NCBI RefSeq assembly: GCF_901538355.1
Contig: NZ_LR593887.1
Span: 4,254,920 to 4,318,919, forward strand
DNA: 64,000 nt
Source: Tuwongella immobilis
GTDB taxonomy: Bacteria > Planctomycetota > Planctomycetia > Gemmatales > Gemmataceae
Reading direction: 5' to 3'
Shown: positions 17,585 through 63,397 of the stretch, piece by piece
Numbering within the stretch: position 1 is the first letter of the stretch
Layout of the letters: each line of letters starts with the position of its first letter
Notes under the pieces: model-generated
Databases searched by the model: none
The model's input: the letters and a program-made list of their open reading frames with translations, nothing else
Told to the model about the DNA's origin: nothing
Translations under genes and position numbers: made by a program

Positions 17585-17593
17585 CACCTGGGT

Positions 17594-17656
17594 GTGGCAC
17601 GCTGCCCGTATGGGGGGTGGGACGCTGTCCGTGTGGGGTGTGGGACGCTGTCCCAC
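17594..17656. repeat. short tandem GTGGGACGCTGTCC units
   Basis: Three units related to GTGGGACGCTGTCC begin at 17594, 17618 and 17640 (spacing 24 and 22 bases), separated by GTGTGGGG-like spacers. They start directly after the rnr stop codon. The last unit completes a palindrome, GTGGGAC-GCT-GTCCCAC. The mirror-image cluster at 18942-19031 has four units. Confidence 0.8.
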
Positions 17657-18654: not shown

Positions 18655-18958
18655 AAAATGATCGGAGCGAAGACGCGATCGCCAAGGAGACGCCGTTCCC
18701 TTTGCCAGGGCCGTGGGACAGCGTCCCACCCTGATCCCCGGATCGACGATCCCGGCTGAGGAATGCCCGAAGAGGGGCATCAGCCTGCGATAGTCTCCCG
18801 CCAACAAGCCCCAAACGTGGCCCCCGCGAGGAGCATTTTTCGGGGTGAGCGAATTGACAACGTCAATCGATCGCCCCGAAAAATGATCGGAGCGAAGACG
18901 GGGATCGCCAAGGGGACGCCGTTCCCTTGGCCAGGGCGTGGGACAGCGTCCCACACCC
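18655..18958 (-). repeat. right arm of the ~303-bp inverted repeat
   Basis: Reverse complement of 17636-17938 at close to 99% identity by eye, including the nested palindromes. The two arms bracket ~716 bases holding the 112-residue gene. Near identity over 300 bases implies recent duplication, inversion or gene conversion. No transposase is encoded between or beside the arms. Confidence 0.93.
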
Positions 18959-19031
18959 ACACACGGACAGCGTCCCACACCCACACACGGACAGCGTCCC
19001 ACACCCCTCCCACAGACAGCGTCCCACACAC
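18942..19031. repeat. four tandem 24-bp GACAGCGTCCCACACC units
   Basis: Units start at 18942, 18966, 18990 and 19015 (spacing 24, 24, 25). Each holds GACAGCGTCCCACAC followed by a CCACACACG-like spacer. They lie in the convergent space beyond the zinc-ribbon gene stop and may act as its transcription end. Confidence 0.85.
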
Positions 19032-19074
19032 ACTTCACACCCGTCTCCCGATGCACCGACGGCCATCCGTGCAA

Positions 19075-54215: not shown

Positions 54216-54595
<380 letters not shown>

Positions 54596-54709: not shown

Positions 54710-55903
54710 CTACGCCTGTTTTTGCGTCGGGTTTGCGCCGCTTTTTGCGCCGCCTTGCCCGTCTCTGATCTGATCCCAATTCGCCGCCGTATCGAAAGCC
54801 ACATCAGTCGGATCAACATAGTGTCGCAATGCGATCGACGGCGTGTTACCTAGCCATTTGGTCACTACCGCCAATGGAAATTTTCCGGCCAGATCAGACT
54901 CACATGAAGATCTGAGCGAGTGCCAAAGTCTTGGCCAAGGTTCAACTCCCGCGCGGCGGAGCACCTTTCCGAGGGTCGAACGAAGATTGGCATTCCGCCA
55001 ACCATGCGGTCCCATGGCCCGCTTGCGATACATTTCCGGAATCACGAAGATCGTTCCCGGCTCGGCAGCCTCAAACGCTGCTTCGAGATATGGTCGGATT
55101 GATGGGAACAATGGAATGATCCGATGCGGCTTCCCTTGTCGGGAAGTCTTTGGGCTTGGCACCGCGATCCGGTTGCGCTCCCAATCGACATCGGCCCAGG
55201 TCAAGCTGAACGGTTCCGACGGAGTCCGCAGACCGCCAAATCGGGCCAGCGCAACCAGCAGTCTCCACCAAACGTTCGGGCAATGGTCAATCACTCGGAT
55301 CACATCCGCTGTCGGCACGTATGCTCGCCGCTCCGAAACATTGCCGGTGCGATGCCGAACATGTTTCCACGCGTTCGCTTGGATGATGCCTTTACGAACC
55401 GCATCATCAAAAAATTGTCGTGCGTGGGTCAGCCGTTTGTGGATAGTTGAAGCGCGGAGATTGCGTTCCATCAGCGATTGGCGAAATCGCTCACCATCCT
55501 CGGCAGTCATCGATTGGAGCGATCGACCGGGAAACATAATCGTCAAATCACGAATCACCTGTCCCCAAGCGATCAGCGATTGTTTGGCGTATCCACTGGT
55601 TTTCCGGTCATCCAACCAATCTTGCAAATACCCCACGAAGTCATTCGTTTTTTCCAACCCAATCAGTCCAACCGCCGCGAGTTTCTCGCGCAATTGATCG
55701 CCCAGCGACTCAATCCAGATCGCCGTTTCGCGGGGCATGGGTTGGCCGCTGATCTTCGCTCCGAGGATTGCTTCCACCTGCCGGCAGATCGAATCCGCAT
55801 CTTTCCGACTCATCTTCCCCAAGCGGATGGTTCGCCGGTGATCATCAATTCCCTTGAATTGGATGCGCCGCCGTCCGTTGGGGTCGTTAATCACACTTGC
55901 CAC
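54710..55903 (-). CDS. tyrosine recombinase / phage-type integrase
   Basis: A 397-residue integrase. Start chosen at GTG 55903 (MASVINDPNGRRRIQF) because AGGAG lies 8 bases upstream; an ATG at 55936 would add 11 residues. Arm-binding and SAM-like core domain ~60-200; catalytic domain ~215-380 with Arg in FGGLRTPSE, HSLRSS supplying His and Arg, and the nucleophile Tyr in ALRHYVDPTD. The second conserved His (usually LGH) is Asn in WLGNTP. It lies beside ssrA and is oriented towards it, so it should integrate and excise this element at the ssrA end. Confidence 0.93.
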   Translation of the reverse strand: MASVINDPNGRRRIQFKGIDDHRRTIRLGKMSRKDADSICRQVEAILGAKISGQPMPRETAIWIESLGDQLREKLAAVGLIGLEKTNDFVGYLQDWLDDRKTSGYAKQSLIAWGQVIRDLTIMFPGRSLQSMTAEDGERFRQSLMERNLRASTIHKRLTHARQFFDDAVRKGIIQANAWKHVRHRTGNVSERRAYVPTADVIRVIDHCPNVWWRLLVALARFGGLRTPSEPFSLTWADVDWERNRIAVPSPKTSRQGKPHRIIPLFPSIRPYLEAAFEAAEPGTIFVIPEMYRKRAMGPHGWRNANLRSTLGKVLRRAGVEPWPRLWHSLRSSCESDLAGKFPLAVVTKWLGNTPSIALRHYVDPTDVAFDTAANWDQIRDGQGGAKSGANPTQKQA

Positions 55904-56165
55904 GGTGTGTTCTCCTAGTGACCGTCCCGGGGTCATCAGCAGGCTATCCAATCGACATAGGTGACACAATTCCAACTGGTCAAAATTCCAGATTTTCGAC
56001 GAATTTATCTGGACACATTATCATTGTGAATTTATGTTTATATACGCACCATTACCTGTAGTTTGAATCCCTTGCGCTCCCTGCAATTACCTCCGGTGGA
56101 ATCCCAAGCGAGGCGATTGCGTTCCGTTGAAGCGACACCGTTGCGATCTTGGTGAGGCACTGTCC

Positions 56166-56654
56166 GTGGAACAGTTTCTGACCGCCGCCCGAGTTGCGCG
56201 AACGCTTGCGATTGCAGCAAGCGAGCTGGAATCGTTTCTGCTGGAGCACAATGGCCCCAAACCGATCCAATTGGGGAATCGCGGTTTGCGTTGGCGGCGG
56301 TCAGAAATCGAGTTGTGGATTGAGCAGCTGATTGACCACCCGCGCCCAGTCATTCGCCAACCTGAATCGGTTGCTGAAACCGCTCCGCCGGTGCAATCTG
56401 CTGAGCCACTGCCCGCCGCTGCAACAACGTCTGCTTTACCAGCGCGGGAACTGTTGCCCACATTGGCGCAAGAAATTCTCCAGGTATTGCAGGAAGCAAA
56501 TGATTGGTTGCACGCAGCCGAGATTGCCTACCGAATTTCATCAGATGTGAGCTGCAGTGCTGGCAATTGGAACCGCATGATCCGCCGCCTGAAGACTGAG
56601 CATTGGATCATCTCCCACCCCAAACTTGGCTATCGGATCCGATCCAGAAGCTGA
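56166..56654 (+). CDS. AlpA-like DNA-binding protein with second winged helix
   Basis: A 162-residue protein. Start taken as GTG 56166, 8 bases after GGTGAGG; a TTG at 56127 is an alternative. The N-terminal ~55 residues match the AlpA/excisionase-type winged helix (PKPIQLGNRGLRWRRSEIEL, WIEQLID). A Pro/Ala-rich linker leads to a second likely winged helix (LPTLAQEILQVLQEANDWLH to LKTEHWIISHPKLGYRI). It may act as recombination directionality factor or as a regulator. Divergent from the integrase, with a 260-base AT-rich gap holding both promoters. A possible terminator hairpin, GGGCCGATC / GATCGGTCC, follows near 56726-56752. Confidence 0.65.
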   Translation: MEQFLTAARVARTLAIAASELESFLLEHNGPKPIQLGNRGLRWRRSEIELWIEQLIDHPRPVIRQPESVAETAPPVQSAEPLPAAATTSALPARELLPTLAQEILQVLQEANDWLHAAEIAYRISSDVSCSAGNWNRMIRRLKTEHWIISHPKLGYRIRSRS

Positions 56655-56834
56655 TCGCATCGATTCACTTCCCAACGTGTCAATGCCCGTTGGTTGCCCA
56701 TGTTCGTTTTTAGGCGGCAGGCGGGCCGATCTTCTGCTCGGATCGGTCCGTAAGCGGGTAAGCCATCATTTCACAACACAAACGCGAATGATCACCTCAA
56801 AAAGATCAACCAAATTGTACAGGATGCCTCCAAT

Positions 56835-56943
56835 GGGCAGGCACCCATTGGGCAACGATGGGGCAATCAAAGGGCAACGAAAGGGCACCCATGAGGCAAG
56901 GTCAAGGCAACGATCGGGCAAATCATGAGGCAATCAAGAGGCG
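56835..56943 (+). repeat. array of RGGCA boxes at 11-bp spacing (iteron-like)
   Basis: GGGCA or AGGCA begins at 56835, 56850, 56861, 56872, 56883, 56894, 56905, 56916, 56928 and 56939 (last one AGGCG): after the first box the steps are 11,11,11,11,11,11,12,11. The 6-base spacers are partly conserved (consensus about RGGCAAYSAWR). The period is not a multiple of three, and it lies between convergent genes, so neither coding nor an ordinary promoter explains it. One box per DNA helical turn points to cooperative protein binding, as at replication or partition sites. Confidence 0.85.
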
Positions 56944-57101: not shown

Positions 57102-58439
57102 TTATTCGCTTTTCAGCTCATTCAAAATTGATTGGGCCTCAGTCTGAACAGGAAGCGAATAAAGTGGACCGGAGTAGATTTTTAGTGTCTCAGTCACCCA
57201 TTTGGATTTTGGAAGGAGTTCAAGGTTCAGTCGCAAATGCTGAAGCAACAAACGGGAATGCTCTTGATGGCTCTTAATCCACTTCGGATTCGTCGCGTAT
57301 TGCGAGAGACATTTTGCAACAACGGGCACGTGAATTTCTGGGTTTGGAAGATCGCCGAGACGCTGACTGGCTTTGATTGATTCCTCGGGTGTGTATCGAT
57401 CACACGCCGCAAGACGGAGGACAAAATGAATCCGAGGCAGAACCTTTTGAAGTGTCACGTCTGCAGGGCTGTTGTTCGGGGGGACGTTTGCAAGCCAGGT
57501 AGCATAGAGTTCACGATGGTATTTCAATCCGCCTTTTTCCCCAAGATCGCGGACCTTCGATGCCGCCGCTTCGAATTCAACTTCTGGCGCATCGACTCTC
57601 AACGCCTTCGCGATCTCGTCTTCCGTCATCTCCAGGGGAGATTCCTTCATCGGCTCTTTGGTTGCCGATGGAATGCGTGCCACTGGGGTCAATGTTTGTT
57701 TTCGCCGTTTGGTGACATCCTCAATGGCAGTCTGTTTTTCCAACTTAGAAAATTCGTCCCGCAAAGACTTCAACAAAGTGAACGCGCGGGAGCGTTTTGC
57801 CGCGGTGGTTTTTGGGGATCGAGCCAACTGGGCCAAACAAATAATCGCATGACGGCGGCAATCAAGTGGAAAGATTGTTTTCGCTTTGTCCGCACTTGGT
57901 TGCGCGATCCGGAACAACAAGTCTGGATTAATGACCAATGCAAAGTGTTCGTCCATAAGAGCCGTGATGAGTTCCAGCATCACCAGCAATCGTTCTTCGC
58001 CTGATGGGGCAAGCGAACGCGTTTCAGTGGTGGCGATTCGTGCAAACTCAAGCATGAGATCTTCTGAATAAAGTGAGACATCCTGCGGCTGTTTCACGAG
58101 TTTCGCAGCACAATTTCGACGGGTTTCCAAGCTGTCTTTTCCCGGAACGCGATTCGAGACAACCTCCTGATAAAACGGATGCAGATCTGGAAGAATTTTT
58201 GAAAGTGCATCTGATGCGGCTGAACCAATCCCTTTGGCTCTCATCATCCCGTAGAGGGTTGGAGCAAACTGGACTGCAGCAGGCCCTTTGTCCCCGAGTT
58301 GTTGAATGGCTTTGATCTTGGAGAGGGCATTACCGTTTTTGAGAGCGTCTCGAATTGCATCAAAATCATCCGCTTTGCAGATAAGCGGAATAGCAAAAAT
58401 GAGTAACAGCCCAAATATCAGACGATTCCAACCAAGCAT
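57102..58439 (-). CDS. secreted helical-repeat protein, element cargo
   Basis: A 445-residue protein with a signal peptide (LIFGLLLIFAIPLICKADD). The mature part is helical with weak HEAT-like repetition (SKIKAIQQLGDKGPAAVQFA; AASKVRDLGEKGGLKYHREL; KASQRLGDLPNPEIHVPVVA). No catalytic motif and no phage family recognised. Its style matches host planctomycete secreted proteins and its codon use seems less GC-biased than the core genes, so it is probably cargo carried by the element. Same strand as the upstream ribbon-helix-helix gene, 57 bases away. Confidence 0.75.
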   Translation of the reverse strand: MLGWNRLIFGLLLIFAIPLICKADDFDAIRDALKNGNALSKIKAIQQLGDKGPAAVQFAPTLYGMMRAKGIGSAASDALSKILPDLHPFYQEVVSNRVPGKDSLETRRNCAAKLVKQPQDVSLYSEDLMLEFARIATTETRSLAPSGEERLLVMLELITALMDEHFALVINPDLLFRIAQPSADKAKTIFPLDCRRHAIICLAQLARSPKTTAAKRSRAFTLLKSLRDEFSKLEKQTAIEDVTKRRKQTLTPVARIPSATKEPMKESPLEMTEDEIAKALRVDAPEVEFEAAASKVRDLGEKGGLKYHRELYATWLANVPPNNSPADVTLQKVLPRIHFVLRLAACDRYTPEESIKASQRLGDLPNPEIHVPVVAKCLSQYATNPKWIKSHQEHSRLLLQHLRLNLELLPKSKWVTETLKIYSGPLYSLPVQTEAQSILNELKSE

Positions 58440-58496
58440 AAAGTGGCTCCTGAAAGAATTGGAACCACTGCAAAGTACAACGGAGGTGCAGGTGAA

Positions 58497-58754
58497 TCAA
58501 TCAGAACTAGTTTGTTGTTTGTCAGGTGGGGGAGGCCAACAACCAGCTTTTTTCAAAAACTCTCGAATTGCAGCTCGCAAGACATCGCTTTCTCGCGGTC
58601 GAACATCAGCACGATCGAGATATTGCGCCAAAGCAGCTTCAAGATCAGCAGTTAGGGTAACAGTGATGCGTTTGTGCGCGTAGTGGCCAGCACCACGGGG
58701 GCGTTCGTCGGGAGTTTCAGGATTAGCCGGATTCTTCTCCATCAGGGCGATCAT
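58497..58754 (-). CDS. ribbon-helix-helix DNA-binding protein
   Basis: An 85-residue protein with a CopG/ParD-like ribbon-helix-helix: RITVTLTADLEAALAQYLDR and ESDVLRAAIREFLKKA (~30-72), preceded by a polar arm and followed by a Pro-rich tail. Start ATG 58754 is 8 bases after AGGAG. It is divergent from the early operon, and the gap contains a palindrome lying inside the operon promoter, so it is the natural candidate for the operon repressor. No toxin gene partner follows. Confidence 0.85.
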   Translation of the reverse strand: MIALMEKNPANPETPDERPRGAGHYAHKRITVTLTADLEAALAQYLDRADVRPRESDVLRAAIREFLKKAGCWPPPPDKQQTSSD

Positions 58755-58822
58755 ACTTCCGCTCCTCTCTGGAACCAAGGCCCGCAACGACATCACGAGT
58801 AACAACTTAGCACATTTATCTT

Positions 58823-58948: not shown

Positions 58949-59173
58949 ATGAGCATGGAAATCCTGAAGGCCAAAGAACCAGAGTTGCCGGTGATCGCTC
59001 TGCGAGTCGATCAGGCGGCGAAGTCGCTCGGGGTCAGCGACAAGACCATCTACCGAATGATCAAGGCCGGGCTACCCCATCTGCGATTTGGCGGATGTCT
59101 GCTGATCCCGGTGGATGGAGCGCGGGCATGGATCGCCGAGCAATCCAAATCGGAGGTGGCAACGGATGAATAA
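58949..59173 (+). CDS. excisionase-like helix-turn-helix protein
   Basis: A 74-residue protein of the HTH_17/excisionase family: LRVDQAAKSLGVSDKTIYRM followed by the wing LRFGGCLLIPVDGARAWIAE. Such proteins assist excision or regulate early genes. First gene of a tightly packed operon; its stop overlaps the next start by 8 bases. A second ATG two codons on is possible. Confidence 0.85.
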   Translation: MSMEILKAKEPELPVIALRVDQAAKSLGVSDKTIYRMIKAGLPHLRFGGCLLIPVDGARAWIAEQSKSEVATDE

Positions 59174-61891: not shown

Positions 61892-62284
61892 ATGTCATCG
61901 GAATGGATGCCGATTCCGCTCACGCTGGCCAAAGATGTTCGGCTGGATGAGCTTGCGTTTCGCTTGCGGGTGAATCGCTGCTGGGTGTTGGGTGTGCTGA
62001 TCGACTTGTGGACCACCGCTTACCACCAAGCCGCCGATGGTGTGTTCCCGGTATTTCGCCCGGAGACGCTGGATGCGATCTATGGCATCCACGGTCTGTG
62101 CCGCGAGTTGGCCAAATTGGGTTGGGTGGAGATCGATGGCGACTCGCTCAGGCTGCCTCGCTTTCGGGAACAGTTTGGCTCCGAGGCAAGGCGTCGGGCG
62201 ATGGAGTCGCGCCGGAAGGCGAATAGCCGATCCCGCAGCGAGTTACCTGCTTCCCGAAATCCGCGAACCAACCCCGCCGCGTGA
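61892..62284 (+). CDS. initiator-like protein, N-terminal domain only
   Basis: A 130-residue protein paralogous to the N-terminal ~110 residues of the next gene: EWMPIPLTLAKDVRLDELAF against DWMPVRLSLTSDMRIQQIAA, then VLGVLIDLWTTAYHQAADGV against VVGALIDLWTNANLQTMEGV. The fold is a winged helix like phage replisome-organiser N-termini. It ends in a basic Ser/Arg-rich tail and lacks the repeats and C-terminal domain of its neighbour. A tandem duplication is likely; it may compete for or share the same DNA site. Confidence 0.8.
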   Translation: MSSEWMPIPLTLAKDVRLDELAFRLRVNRCWVLGVLIDLWTTAYHQAADGVFPVFRPETLDAIYGIHGLCRELAKLGWVEIDGDSLRLPRFREQFGSEARRRAMESRRKANSRSRSELPASRNPRTNPAA

Positions 62285-62299
62285 AAGGAGAAATACCCA

Positions 62300-63397
62300 A
62301 TGGCACTCGATTGGATGCCGGTGCGGCTCTCCCTCACCAGTGATATGCGAATTCAGCAGATCGCAGCGCAATTGAACGTCACTCGTTATCACGTTGTGGG
62401 AGCGTTGATCGATTTGTGGACCAATGCGAACCTTCAGACCATGGAAGGTGTGTTCCGCTATTTCCCGCGTCAGAAGCTGGACATGGTTTATCAACTGCCT
62501 GGCTTTGCCCAAGCCTTGGAGGAACTGGGTTGGATTTCATTCCAAGGCAACAGTTTGAAGATTGAGAACTTTGAAGAACACAACGGAAAAGGAGCCCGTC
62601 GTCGGGCACTCGAAAACCGCCGAAAAGCGATTAGCCGTGAAAAACAACGAGTCCACAAGACGGCGCAAGATGTCTTCGACGAAGCGGACGAAAATGCGGA
62701 CACCCTGACCGATGGTCCGCATGAAGACGGACTGTTTGCGCCCGTGGTGCGGACAGATGCGGACAAAAATGCGGACACATGCGCCTCTCATGCGGACAAA
62801 AATGCGGACACATGCGCCCCACATGCGGCAAAAAATGCGGACACATGCGCCTCTCATGCGGACAATCGCGGACGTGCTGCGCCCCAAGAACAACAACAAC
62901 AACAATATATACAGAGAGGAAGAATCCTCTCTGTACTCTCCTCTTGCTCGGAGCCGGAACAATCCGGCCCCGAACCAACGCCACCCGCCGCCAAACCGAA
63001 ATCGGTTCCCGGCCTTTGGGGCAAACCACCGATCCAATTCGATCCCGCCCAAAGCACCTGGGTGGGGATCACCGATGCGATTCGCTCATCCTGGGCCGTT
63101 GCCTGCCCAGCGGTGGACATCGATCACGAGTTGGCCAAGTCCGCCACCTGGGTGGCAAGCATCGGCGCGAAGGGCCGGAAGTCAAACTATCGCGCCTTCC
63201 TGACCAAGTGGATGTTGCGATCTCAGGAGCAATCCAGTCGCAAAGGCGGCCAGCCGCCTCGGCAGTCGCTTCCGAAGCCTCCAGGCGACACTTCTCCCAT
63301 CTCGATGAGCCGCGACGAACTACGGGCCGAATTTCGCAAACTCTCCGAATCCGCTCCACCACCGGTTCCCGAAGGAGGTGACGAATGGATGCAATGA
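62300..63397 (+). CDS. phage replisome-organiser-like replication protein
   Basis: A 365-residue protein. Residues 1-110 form the DNA-binding winged helix shared with the previous gene (WMPVRLSLTSDMRIQQIA, GVFRYFPRQKLDMVYQL). The middle is low complexity: three 11-residue repeats (ADKNADTCASH type, ~153-185), then a poly-Gln run. Residues ~255-320 (STWVGITDAIRSSWAVACPA; WVASIGAKGRKSNYRAFLTK) resemble the C-terminal helicase-loading region of phage O-type proteins. The DNA of the middle region looks like an origin (separate entries). RBS GAAAGGAG precedes ATG 62300. Confidence 0.8.
   Translation: MALDWMPVRLSLTSDMRIQQIAAQLNVTRYHVVGALIDLWTNANLQTMEGVFRYFPRQKLDMVYQLPGFAQALEELGWISFQGNSLKIENFEEHNGKGARRRALENRRKAISREKQRVHKTAQDVFDEADENADTLTDGPHEDGLFAPVVRTDADKNADTCASHADKNADTCAPHAAKNADTCASHADNRGRAAPQEQQQQQYIQRGRILSVLSSCSEPEQSGPEPTPPAAKPKSVPGLWGKPPIQFDPAQSTWVGITDAIRSSWAVACPAVDIDHELAKSATWVASIGAKGRKSNYRAFLTKWMLRSQEQSSRKGGQPPRQSLPKPPGDTSPISMSRDELRAEFRKLSESAPPPVPEGGDEWMQ
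62757..62855 (+). repeat. three tandem 33-bp repeats within the replication gene
   Basis: Units at 62757-62789, 62790-62822 and 62823-62855, each starting ATGCGGACAAAAATGCGGAC and ending in CATGCGCC plus four or five bases; a partial fourth begins at 62856 and a diverged copy lies at 62682-62703. The GCGGAC core occurs about ten times between 62684 and 62873. The repeats keep the reading frame (11 residues each). Confidence 0.9.
62889..62935 (+). other. candidate replication origin: AT-rich stretch and palindrome
   Basis: After the 33-bp repeats come a CAA trinucleotide run and AATATATA (62889-62910), then a perfect palindrome TACAGAGAGGA-AGAA-TCCTCTCTGTA (62910-62935). Iterons, AT-rich DNA and an inverted repeat in this order inside the initiator gene match the layout of the lambda origin in gene O. 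Confidence 0.55.

What the first reader, a model, noticed from the sequence alone, without database searches (positions are those of the whole stretch)
56835..56943. Nine helically phased RGGCA boxes in a convergent intergenic gap
Boxes occur at steps of 11,11,11,11,11,11,12,11 bases after an outlying first copy. The spacing puts each box on the same DNA face. The gap lies between genes that both end there, so it is not a promoter region, and the period excludes coding. This looks like an iteron, partition or packaging site of the ssrA-integrated element, or arm sites of its integrase. I know of no standard element with this exact layout.
Basis: partly seen in the sequence, partly recalled or inferred. 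Interest (0 to 1): 0.75.

Follow-up and report, generated by a model that had tools for sequence, protein, structure and literature searches.

The report
Prophage regulator's helically phased binding array
Behind the gene for a two-domain DNA-binding protein of a planctomycete prophage lies a row of ten short GGGCA-type boxes, one per helix turn; four sister prophages in the same genome carry their own box clusters at the same place, so this is most likely the protein's docking strip and a control site of the virus.

Summary
Shuffles of the gap never gave more than two in phase.

The element is a tailed prophage at ssrA, one of five related prophages in this genome. Each has an AlpA-like + winged-helix gene (here 56127-56654) and an element-specific box cluster in that gene's linker and just behind its stop codon: GGGCA (window and tRNA-Val element), GGGACA (two elements), TTAGCCA/CTCAGCCA (one). 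Box type follows similarity of this protein, not of the integrase. Best reading: a cooperative docking array for the AlpA-winged-helix protein; Apl/Xis/BldC-type proteins bind direct repeats one helix turn apart.

Main rival: an origin. More than 50 viral contigs carry heterogeneous GGGCA arrays with 11-bp steps inside DnaD-like helicase-loader genes. But here the replication gene has its own in-gene array (TGCGGACA), and the gap array has no strong AT-rich flank. Integrase arm sites are disfavoured; partition has no positive support. The convergent gap looks secondary, because a reverse gene pair lies between array and downstream operon. No binding or function was tested.

The parts
56835..56943 (+). 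main phased array: 10 RGGCA boxes (56835, 56839, 56850, 56861, 56872, 56883, 56894, 56905, 56916, 56928) plus AGGCG at 56939
56684..56699 (-). inverted pair of GGGCA boxes, 11 bp apart, just after the AlpA-wHTH stop codon; the tRNA-Val sister has TGCCCGTAGAAATGGGCA at the same place
56410..56459 (-). two GGGCA boxes (56410, 56455) in the linker of the AlpA-wHTH gene
   Evidence: sister elements also have box clusters in the linker
56830..56851 (.). 8-bp inverted repeat CCAATGGG/CCCATTGG around the first boxes
   Evidence: sequence
56722..56750 (+). strong hairpin CGGGCCGATC..GATCGGTCCG after the AlpA-wHTH gene; possible terminator, but no T run
   Evidence: one search finds no terminator-like site
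56127..56654 (+). AlpA-wHTH gene (start may be 56169): AlpA-like domain + disordered linker + winged helix; proposed binder of the boxes
   Evidence: Pfam AlpA PF05930 3.3e-6, phrog_66 1.7e-5, two-domain model pLDDT 71
54710..55912 (-). tyrosine integrase of the element
   Evidence: Pfam PF00589 5e-8; five related copies in the genome
54216..54595 (+). tmRNA gene (ssrA), next to the integrase end of the element
57102..58805 (-). reverse gene pair (445-aa protein of unknown family, 102-aa weak RHH protein) lying between array and alpA2; likely cargo
   Evidence: not seen at this place in the sister elements
58949..59173 (+). second, short AlpA/Xis-size protein (HTH_17); more likely excisionase
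   Evidence: 1.7e-8
61892..63397 (+). rep1 and rep2 replication initiation proteins
   Evidence: phrog_2509 1.8e-23 and 1.8e-36
62748..62865 (+). in-gene array of rep2 (TGCGGACA boxes, 10-12 bp steps): the dedicated replication-origin candidate

Best explanation
The array is the docking strip of the AlpA-winged-helix protein encoded immediately upstream. Protomers are inferred to bind the boxes side by side on one face of the helix, about one per turn, to cooperate, bend the DNA and form a short filament. Because the boxes lie in and just behind the gene, and in three sister prophages just in front of the next gene (alpA2), the filament most likely gates transcription from the control region into the downstream operon and feeds back on its own gene, as Apl does in the switch region of phage 186. 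Shown: the phased boxes; box clusters at the same place in five sister elements; box type tracking protein similarity. Inferred: binding, cooperativity, regulatory output.
For: All five elements have private box clusters at the AlpA-wHTH gene and its 3' gap. By gene+gap count: GGGCA-type 17 of 54 in the window (p 2e-6) and 13 of 60 in the tRNA-Val element (p 9e-4); GGGACA 5 of 8 (p 5e-5) and 11 of 13 (p 1e-11); TTAGCCA/CTCAGCCA 8 of 9 (p 3e-9). Each box type is significantly clustered only in its own element(s) (boxes were chosen by inspection, so p values are optimistic). Box type follows AlpA-wHTH similarity (44% for the two GGGCA elements, 66% for the two GGGACA elements, at most 32% otherwise) and not integrase similarity (window closest to a GGGACA element, 53%; 39% to its GGGCA partner). 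Arrays persist in window and L009 although flanking DNA is no longer alignable. AlpA domain by Pfam/PHROG; weak fold hits to RdfS, GIsul2 excisionase and BldC-DNA. Apl: six-bp direct repeats 10-11 bp apart, seven in the switch region (PMC7498355); BldC and RdfS: head-to-tail binding (PMC5859096, PMC11963761).
Against: No binding data. Five elements give only three box types, so the covariation has few independent points. In two elements the boxes behind the gene are palindromic (CTTGTCCCGGGACAA in one), which fits a dimeric winged helix better than an AlpA-type filament, so which domain reads the boxes is open. No sigma-70-like promoter was found in the gap (planctomycete promoters may differ). 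The GGGCA box and spacing also match viral in-gene replication arrays.
Confidence: 0.42

Rival explanations
1. Iteron-type replication origin (or accessory/incompatibility iterons): an initiator (AlpA-wHTH, rep1 or an ancestral Rep) binds the boxes to start or count replication of the excised element.
For: More than 50 viral contigs carry RGGCA arrays with 11-bp steps (many with one 12-bp first step) inside a forward ORF, mostly about 310-345 nt after its start; the six PHROG-scanned examples match DnaD-like helicase loader / O-like families (phrog_2514, E 4e-13 to 1e-37), and the 60 bp downstream average 72% AT. The 16-mer GGGCAATCAAAGGGCA is shared with two of them. pSK41 RepA_N initiators bind boxes lying centrally in rep, and ori is predicted downstream of rep in other plasmids (PMC5703833).
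Against: The element's rep2 has its own in-gene array, and one sister has another rep-like gene with its own in-gene 12-bp array. No strong AT-rich flank (window 55% AT, L009 45%). AlpA-wHTH has no recognised helicase-loader or primase part. Profile comparison of AlpA-wHTH with the DnaD-like set is not significant.
Confidence: 0.3
2. Excisionase or integrase arm sites: a nucleoprotein strip used in site-specific recombination at ssrA.
For: AlpA is the excisionase of the ssrA-integrated prophage CP4So (PMC5148205); excisionases bind direct repeats one turn apart; the integrase starts about 0.9 kb from the array.
Against: The array is 2.2 kb from the ssrA end and no GGGCA cluster lies near it. 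The integrase N-terminal region is 51-90% identical across the five elements although the boxes differ, and box type does not follow the integrase. A separate short AlpA/Xis-size protein (58949-59173) is the likelier excisionase.
Confidence: 0.1
3. Partition site (parC-like array) stabilising the excised element.
For: Phased direct repeats of about 11 bp are known in partition sites (own knowledge); TubR is among the winged-helix fold matches of the second domain, but so are dozens of unrelated wHTH proteins.
Against: No ParM/ParA/TubZ-like gene was seen among the element proteins scanned; the element is an integrated tailed prophage with terminase and head genes.
Confidence: 0.04
4. Neutral minisatellite left by slippage.
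For: The L009 array has near-identical units; control patterns are about as common as GGCA arrays in class genomes.
Against: In the window the box columns are invariant while spacers are diverged, and box clusters recur at the same place in five elements.
Confidence: 0.05

Closest known systems
Apl operators of phage 186, and RDF/Xis-type direct repeats (PMC7498355)
   Same: Short direct repeats about 10-11 bp apart; seven in the early control region; DNA-binding protein of the RDF type encoded by the same phage
   Different: Here nine to ten boxes with a GGC core; no second set found at the ssrA end; the protein is an AlpA domain fused to a winged helix; boxes also lie inside the gene
In-gene iteron origins: pSK41 RepA_N (PMC5703833), lambda ori inside O (own knowledge), and the viral DnaD-like loader genes found here
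   Same: Arrays tied to the gene of the DNA-binding protein; for the viral loaders the same GGGCA box, 11-bp step and one 12-bp step
   Different: Main array lies outside the gene; no strong AT-rich flank; the element has a separate Rep gene with its own in-gene array
BldC operators (PMC5859096) and RdfS (PMC11963761)
   Same: MerR/AlpA-type wHTH proteins binding head-to-tail on repeated sites
   Different: BldC and RdfS lack the second winged helix; BldC consensus repeats are about 9 bp and AT-rich; RdfS shows no clear box
AlpA of CP4So, relative of AlpA of CP4-57 (PMC5148205)
   Same: AlpA-family protein of an ssrA-integrated prophage
   Different: That AlpA is an excisionase; no phased GGGCA array was found described in the passages read

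Membership tests
Apl/Xis-type RDF operator array | direct repeats about one helix turn apart, at least three adjacent | tested here: met
Apl/Xis-type RDF operator array | RDF/AlpA-family protein encoded by the element next to the array | tested here: met
   Pfam PF05930 3.3e-6 and phrog_66 1.7e-5
Apl/Xis-type RDF operator array | a set of the same sites at the attachment site | tested here: not met
   no GGGCA cluster near the ssrA end in the window; the other end of the element was not examined
Apl/Xis-type RDF operator array | cooperative binding and DNA bending by the protein | not testable with these tools
   needs purified protein
In-gene iteron origin (RepA_N / DnaD-like loader) | array inside the initiator gene right after its DNA-binding domain | tested here: not met
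   main array lies 180 bp after the gene end, only two boxes in the linker; met for rep2 with another box
In-gene iteron origin (RepA_N / DnaD-like loader) | adjacent AT-rich unwinding region | tested here: not met
   55% AT (window) and 45% AT (L009) in 60 bp downstream against 72% in viral arrays
In-gene iteron origin (RepA_N / DnaD-like loader) | supports autonomous replication with its initiator | not testable with these tools
   needs a mini-replicon
Integrase arm-type sites | close to the recombination core | tested here: not met
   2.2 kb from the ssrA end
Integrase arm-type sites | site type follows the integrase arm-binding domain | tested here: not met
Partition site | adjacent partition NTPase gene | tested here: inconclusive
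   none among the proteins scanned; not every gene of the element was scanned

The most novel reading that the evidence does not exclude
A family of prophage proteins with two DNA-binding heads (AlpA + winged helix) carries its private, helically phased recognition array in and behind its own gene, as one cassette whose box sequence evolves with the protein. It would be an intermediate between excisionase-type regulators and replication initiators, able to serve as control filament and as accessory origin.
Probability: 0.3. Interest if true: 0.65.

Novelty: new variant of a known kind. Interest (0 to 1): 0.5.

Why it matters
Five sister prophages in one genome, with three box types that appear to track one protein, give a natural experiment on how a phage DNA-binding protein and its sites evolve together. 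The search also suggests that phased boxes inside phage replication genes are a readable signature: it points to candidate replication origins in many uncultivated viral contigs, which would make origin location directly testable.

Tried and rejected
General planctomycete motif: GGCA(N7GGCA)x3 occurs in 14 of 297 class genomes, about as often as the backwards control, so the array is element-specific. AlpA-wHTH relatives outside this genome: no close relative in IMG/VR other than the element itself; in class genomes outside this one only weak partial hits. Other pattern hits in relatives (L010-L021): none of those compared carries the element's genes, so not used. rep1/rep2 as binder: rep2 has its own TGCGGACA array, and several phrog_2509 genes in other planctomycetes carry differing in-gene boxes. 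Coding explanation: an 11-bp step changes frame at each box. Structured RNA: only tmRNA found by Rfam; the folding z of -2.5 was not pursued. Profile comparison of the DnaD-like set with AlpA-wHTH or rep2: not significant. Sigma-54-like promoter (GG/GC spacing): considered from the sequence and dropped, because the -12 TTGC is absent. Genome-collection scan for GGGCA x5: mixed contexts, a few in loader-like genes.

Full report
WHAT IS THERE. Ten strict RGGCA boxes lie between 56835 and 56932, nine of them in a chain of 11-bp steps with one 12-bp step; an AGGCG follows at 56939. The gap's longest phased chain is 9 against at most 2 in 20,000 shuffles, and in the repeat units the GGC core is invariant while most spacer columns are 22-36% identical. 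An inverted box pair lies at 56684-56699, an 8-bp inverted repeat at the head of the array and a hairpin at 56722-56750. No sigma-70-like promoter or standard terminator was found in the gap.

THE ELEMENT. The window lies in a 6.69-Mb genome. The ssrA gene (54216-54595) is followed by an integrase, an AlpA-like + winged-helix gene (56127-56654), the array, a reverse gene pair (57102-58805), a short AlpA-2 gene, an Erf-like annealing protein and two replication initiation proteins. Further on come terminase, major head protein, head-tail adaptor and tape measure, so it is a tailed prophage. IMG/VR holds it as a 43.6-kb viral contig. The genome has four more elements with related integrases (41-55% identity); three lie at tRNA genes, and for the fourth (L031) no tRNA was found nearby.

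PHYLOGENETIC FOOTPRINT. Only one of the four sisters has a GGGCA array (tRNA-Val element, L009:7244-7303 and pairs further on), directly behind its AlpA-wHTH gene. DNA around the two arrays is no longer alignable, whereas a 4.7-kb replication block further right is 92% identical; the boxes therefore outlived their surroundings. The other three sisters have different box clusters at the same place, in the linker of the gene and just behind its stop codon: GGGACA in two, TTAGCCA/CTCAGCCA in one. Each box is significantly clustered only in its own element or pair of elements (post-hoc boxes, so the p values are optimistic). The grouping by box matches AlpA-wHTH similarity and not integrase similarity. 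In these three sisters the boxes lie between AlpA-wHTH and the next same-strand gene, alpA2. In the window a reverse gene pair lies between array and alpA2, so the 'convergent gap' is probably secondary (inference).

THE PROTEIN. Pfam gives AlpA (3.3e-6) and PHROG an excisionase/regulator family (1.7e-5). A four-sequence AlphaFold model shows two ordered DNA-binding-type domains and a disordered linker (mean pLDDT 71). Among its weak fold matches are the excisionases RdfS and GIsul2 and BldC on DNA, which fit the AlpA half (E above 0.1); the other half is a common winged helix. Published work shows that Apl of phage 186 and other RDFs bind direct repeats spaced one helix turn, cooperatively and with bending, with seven operators in the 186 switch region (PMC7498355), and that BldC binds head-to-tail on repeats (PMC5859096). 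This makes a cooperative docking strip the best reading. What it controls is inferred.

THE ORIGIN RIVAL. A scan of IMG/VR with five phased boxes found 114 stretches against 29 for the backwards control. Of the forward hits, 63 had non-identical spacers (identity below 0.8) against 13 in the control. Most of the heterogeneous ones examined lie inside a forward ORF, mostly about 310-345 nt from its start; the six scanned with PHROGs match DnaD-like helicase loaders. Many begin with a 12-bp step, and AT-rich DNA follows (72% in 60 bp on average). Several control hits (ACGGA boxes) also lie in replication-type ORFs, and planctomycete relatives of rep2 carry yet other boxes. These look like in-gene origins of the kind known in pSK41 (PMC5703833). 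The window array shares box, step and even a 16-mer with two of them, so an origin role stays open. Against it: rep2 has its own array at 62748-62865, the gap array has no strong AT-rich flank, and AlpA-wHTH has no recognised replication domain.

OTHER ELEMENTS. Around related integrases in other planctomycetes, two loci show palindromic or paired boxes at the end of a gene with a C-terminal winged-helix-like region: L357 (CGAAGATTGCCA boxes behind an ATPase-type gene) and L351 (GAAGGTGGCCA boxes); L349 shows a similar tail cluster. These are reading-level observations, but they fit a rule in which a winged-helix coding region is followed by its own boxes.

VERDICT. Observation confirmed. Known kind (phased operator/iteron array of a mobile element), in a variant form: a fused AlpA-winged-helix protein whose private boxes lie in and behind its gene. 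Confidence is moderate that this protein is the binder (about 0.6) and lower for the regulatory function as stated (0.42).

Noticed in passing
window 62748-62865: rep2 gene carries an in-gene array of TGCGGACA boxes at 10-12-bp steps (33-bp higher repeat), a likely replication origin of the element
   Followed up: partly
L093-L204 (IMG/VR loci), e.g. L122:2331-2990, L143:8358-9053, L165:6603-7388: More than 50 viral contigs have GGGCA arrays with 11-bp steps inside replication-type genes (DnaD-like helicase loader where scanned), often with a 12-bp first step and an AT-rich end: a possible general signature of in-gene phage origins
   Followed up: partly
L211, L212, L217, L218, L219, L225, L228, L235: Analogous in-gene arrays with ACGGA boxes in replication-type ORFs turned up in the backwards-control scan
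   Followed up: partly
L030:10505 and L031:10974: 12-bp repeats (GTACCTG boxes); in L030 they lie inside a rep-like gene
   Followed up: partly
L357:10468-10948 and L351:2235-2441: Box clusters (CGAAGATTGCCA; GAAGGTGGCCA) at the end of genes with a C-terminal winged-helix-like region, next to related integrases
   Followed up: partly
L009:6651: AlpA-wHTH gene of the tRNA-Val element has an in-frame TAG after the AlpA domain
   Followed up: no
window 54710-56127: The window element has no CI-like repressor gene between integrase and AlpA-wHTH, unlike the four sister elements
   Followed up: no
window 17590-17653 and 18941-19033: Two tandem arrays of 23-24-bp units (GGACAGCGTCCCACACCC-like, opposite orientations) outside the element
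   Followed up: no
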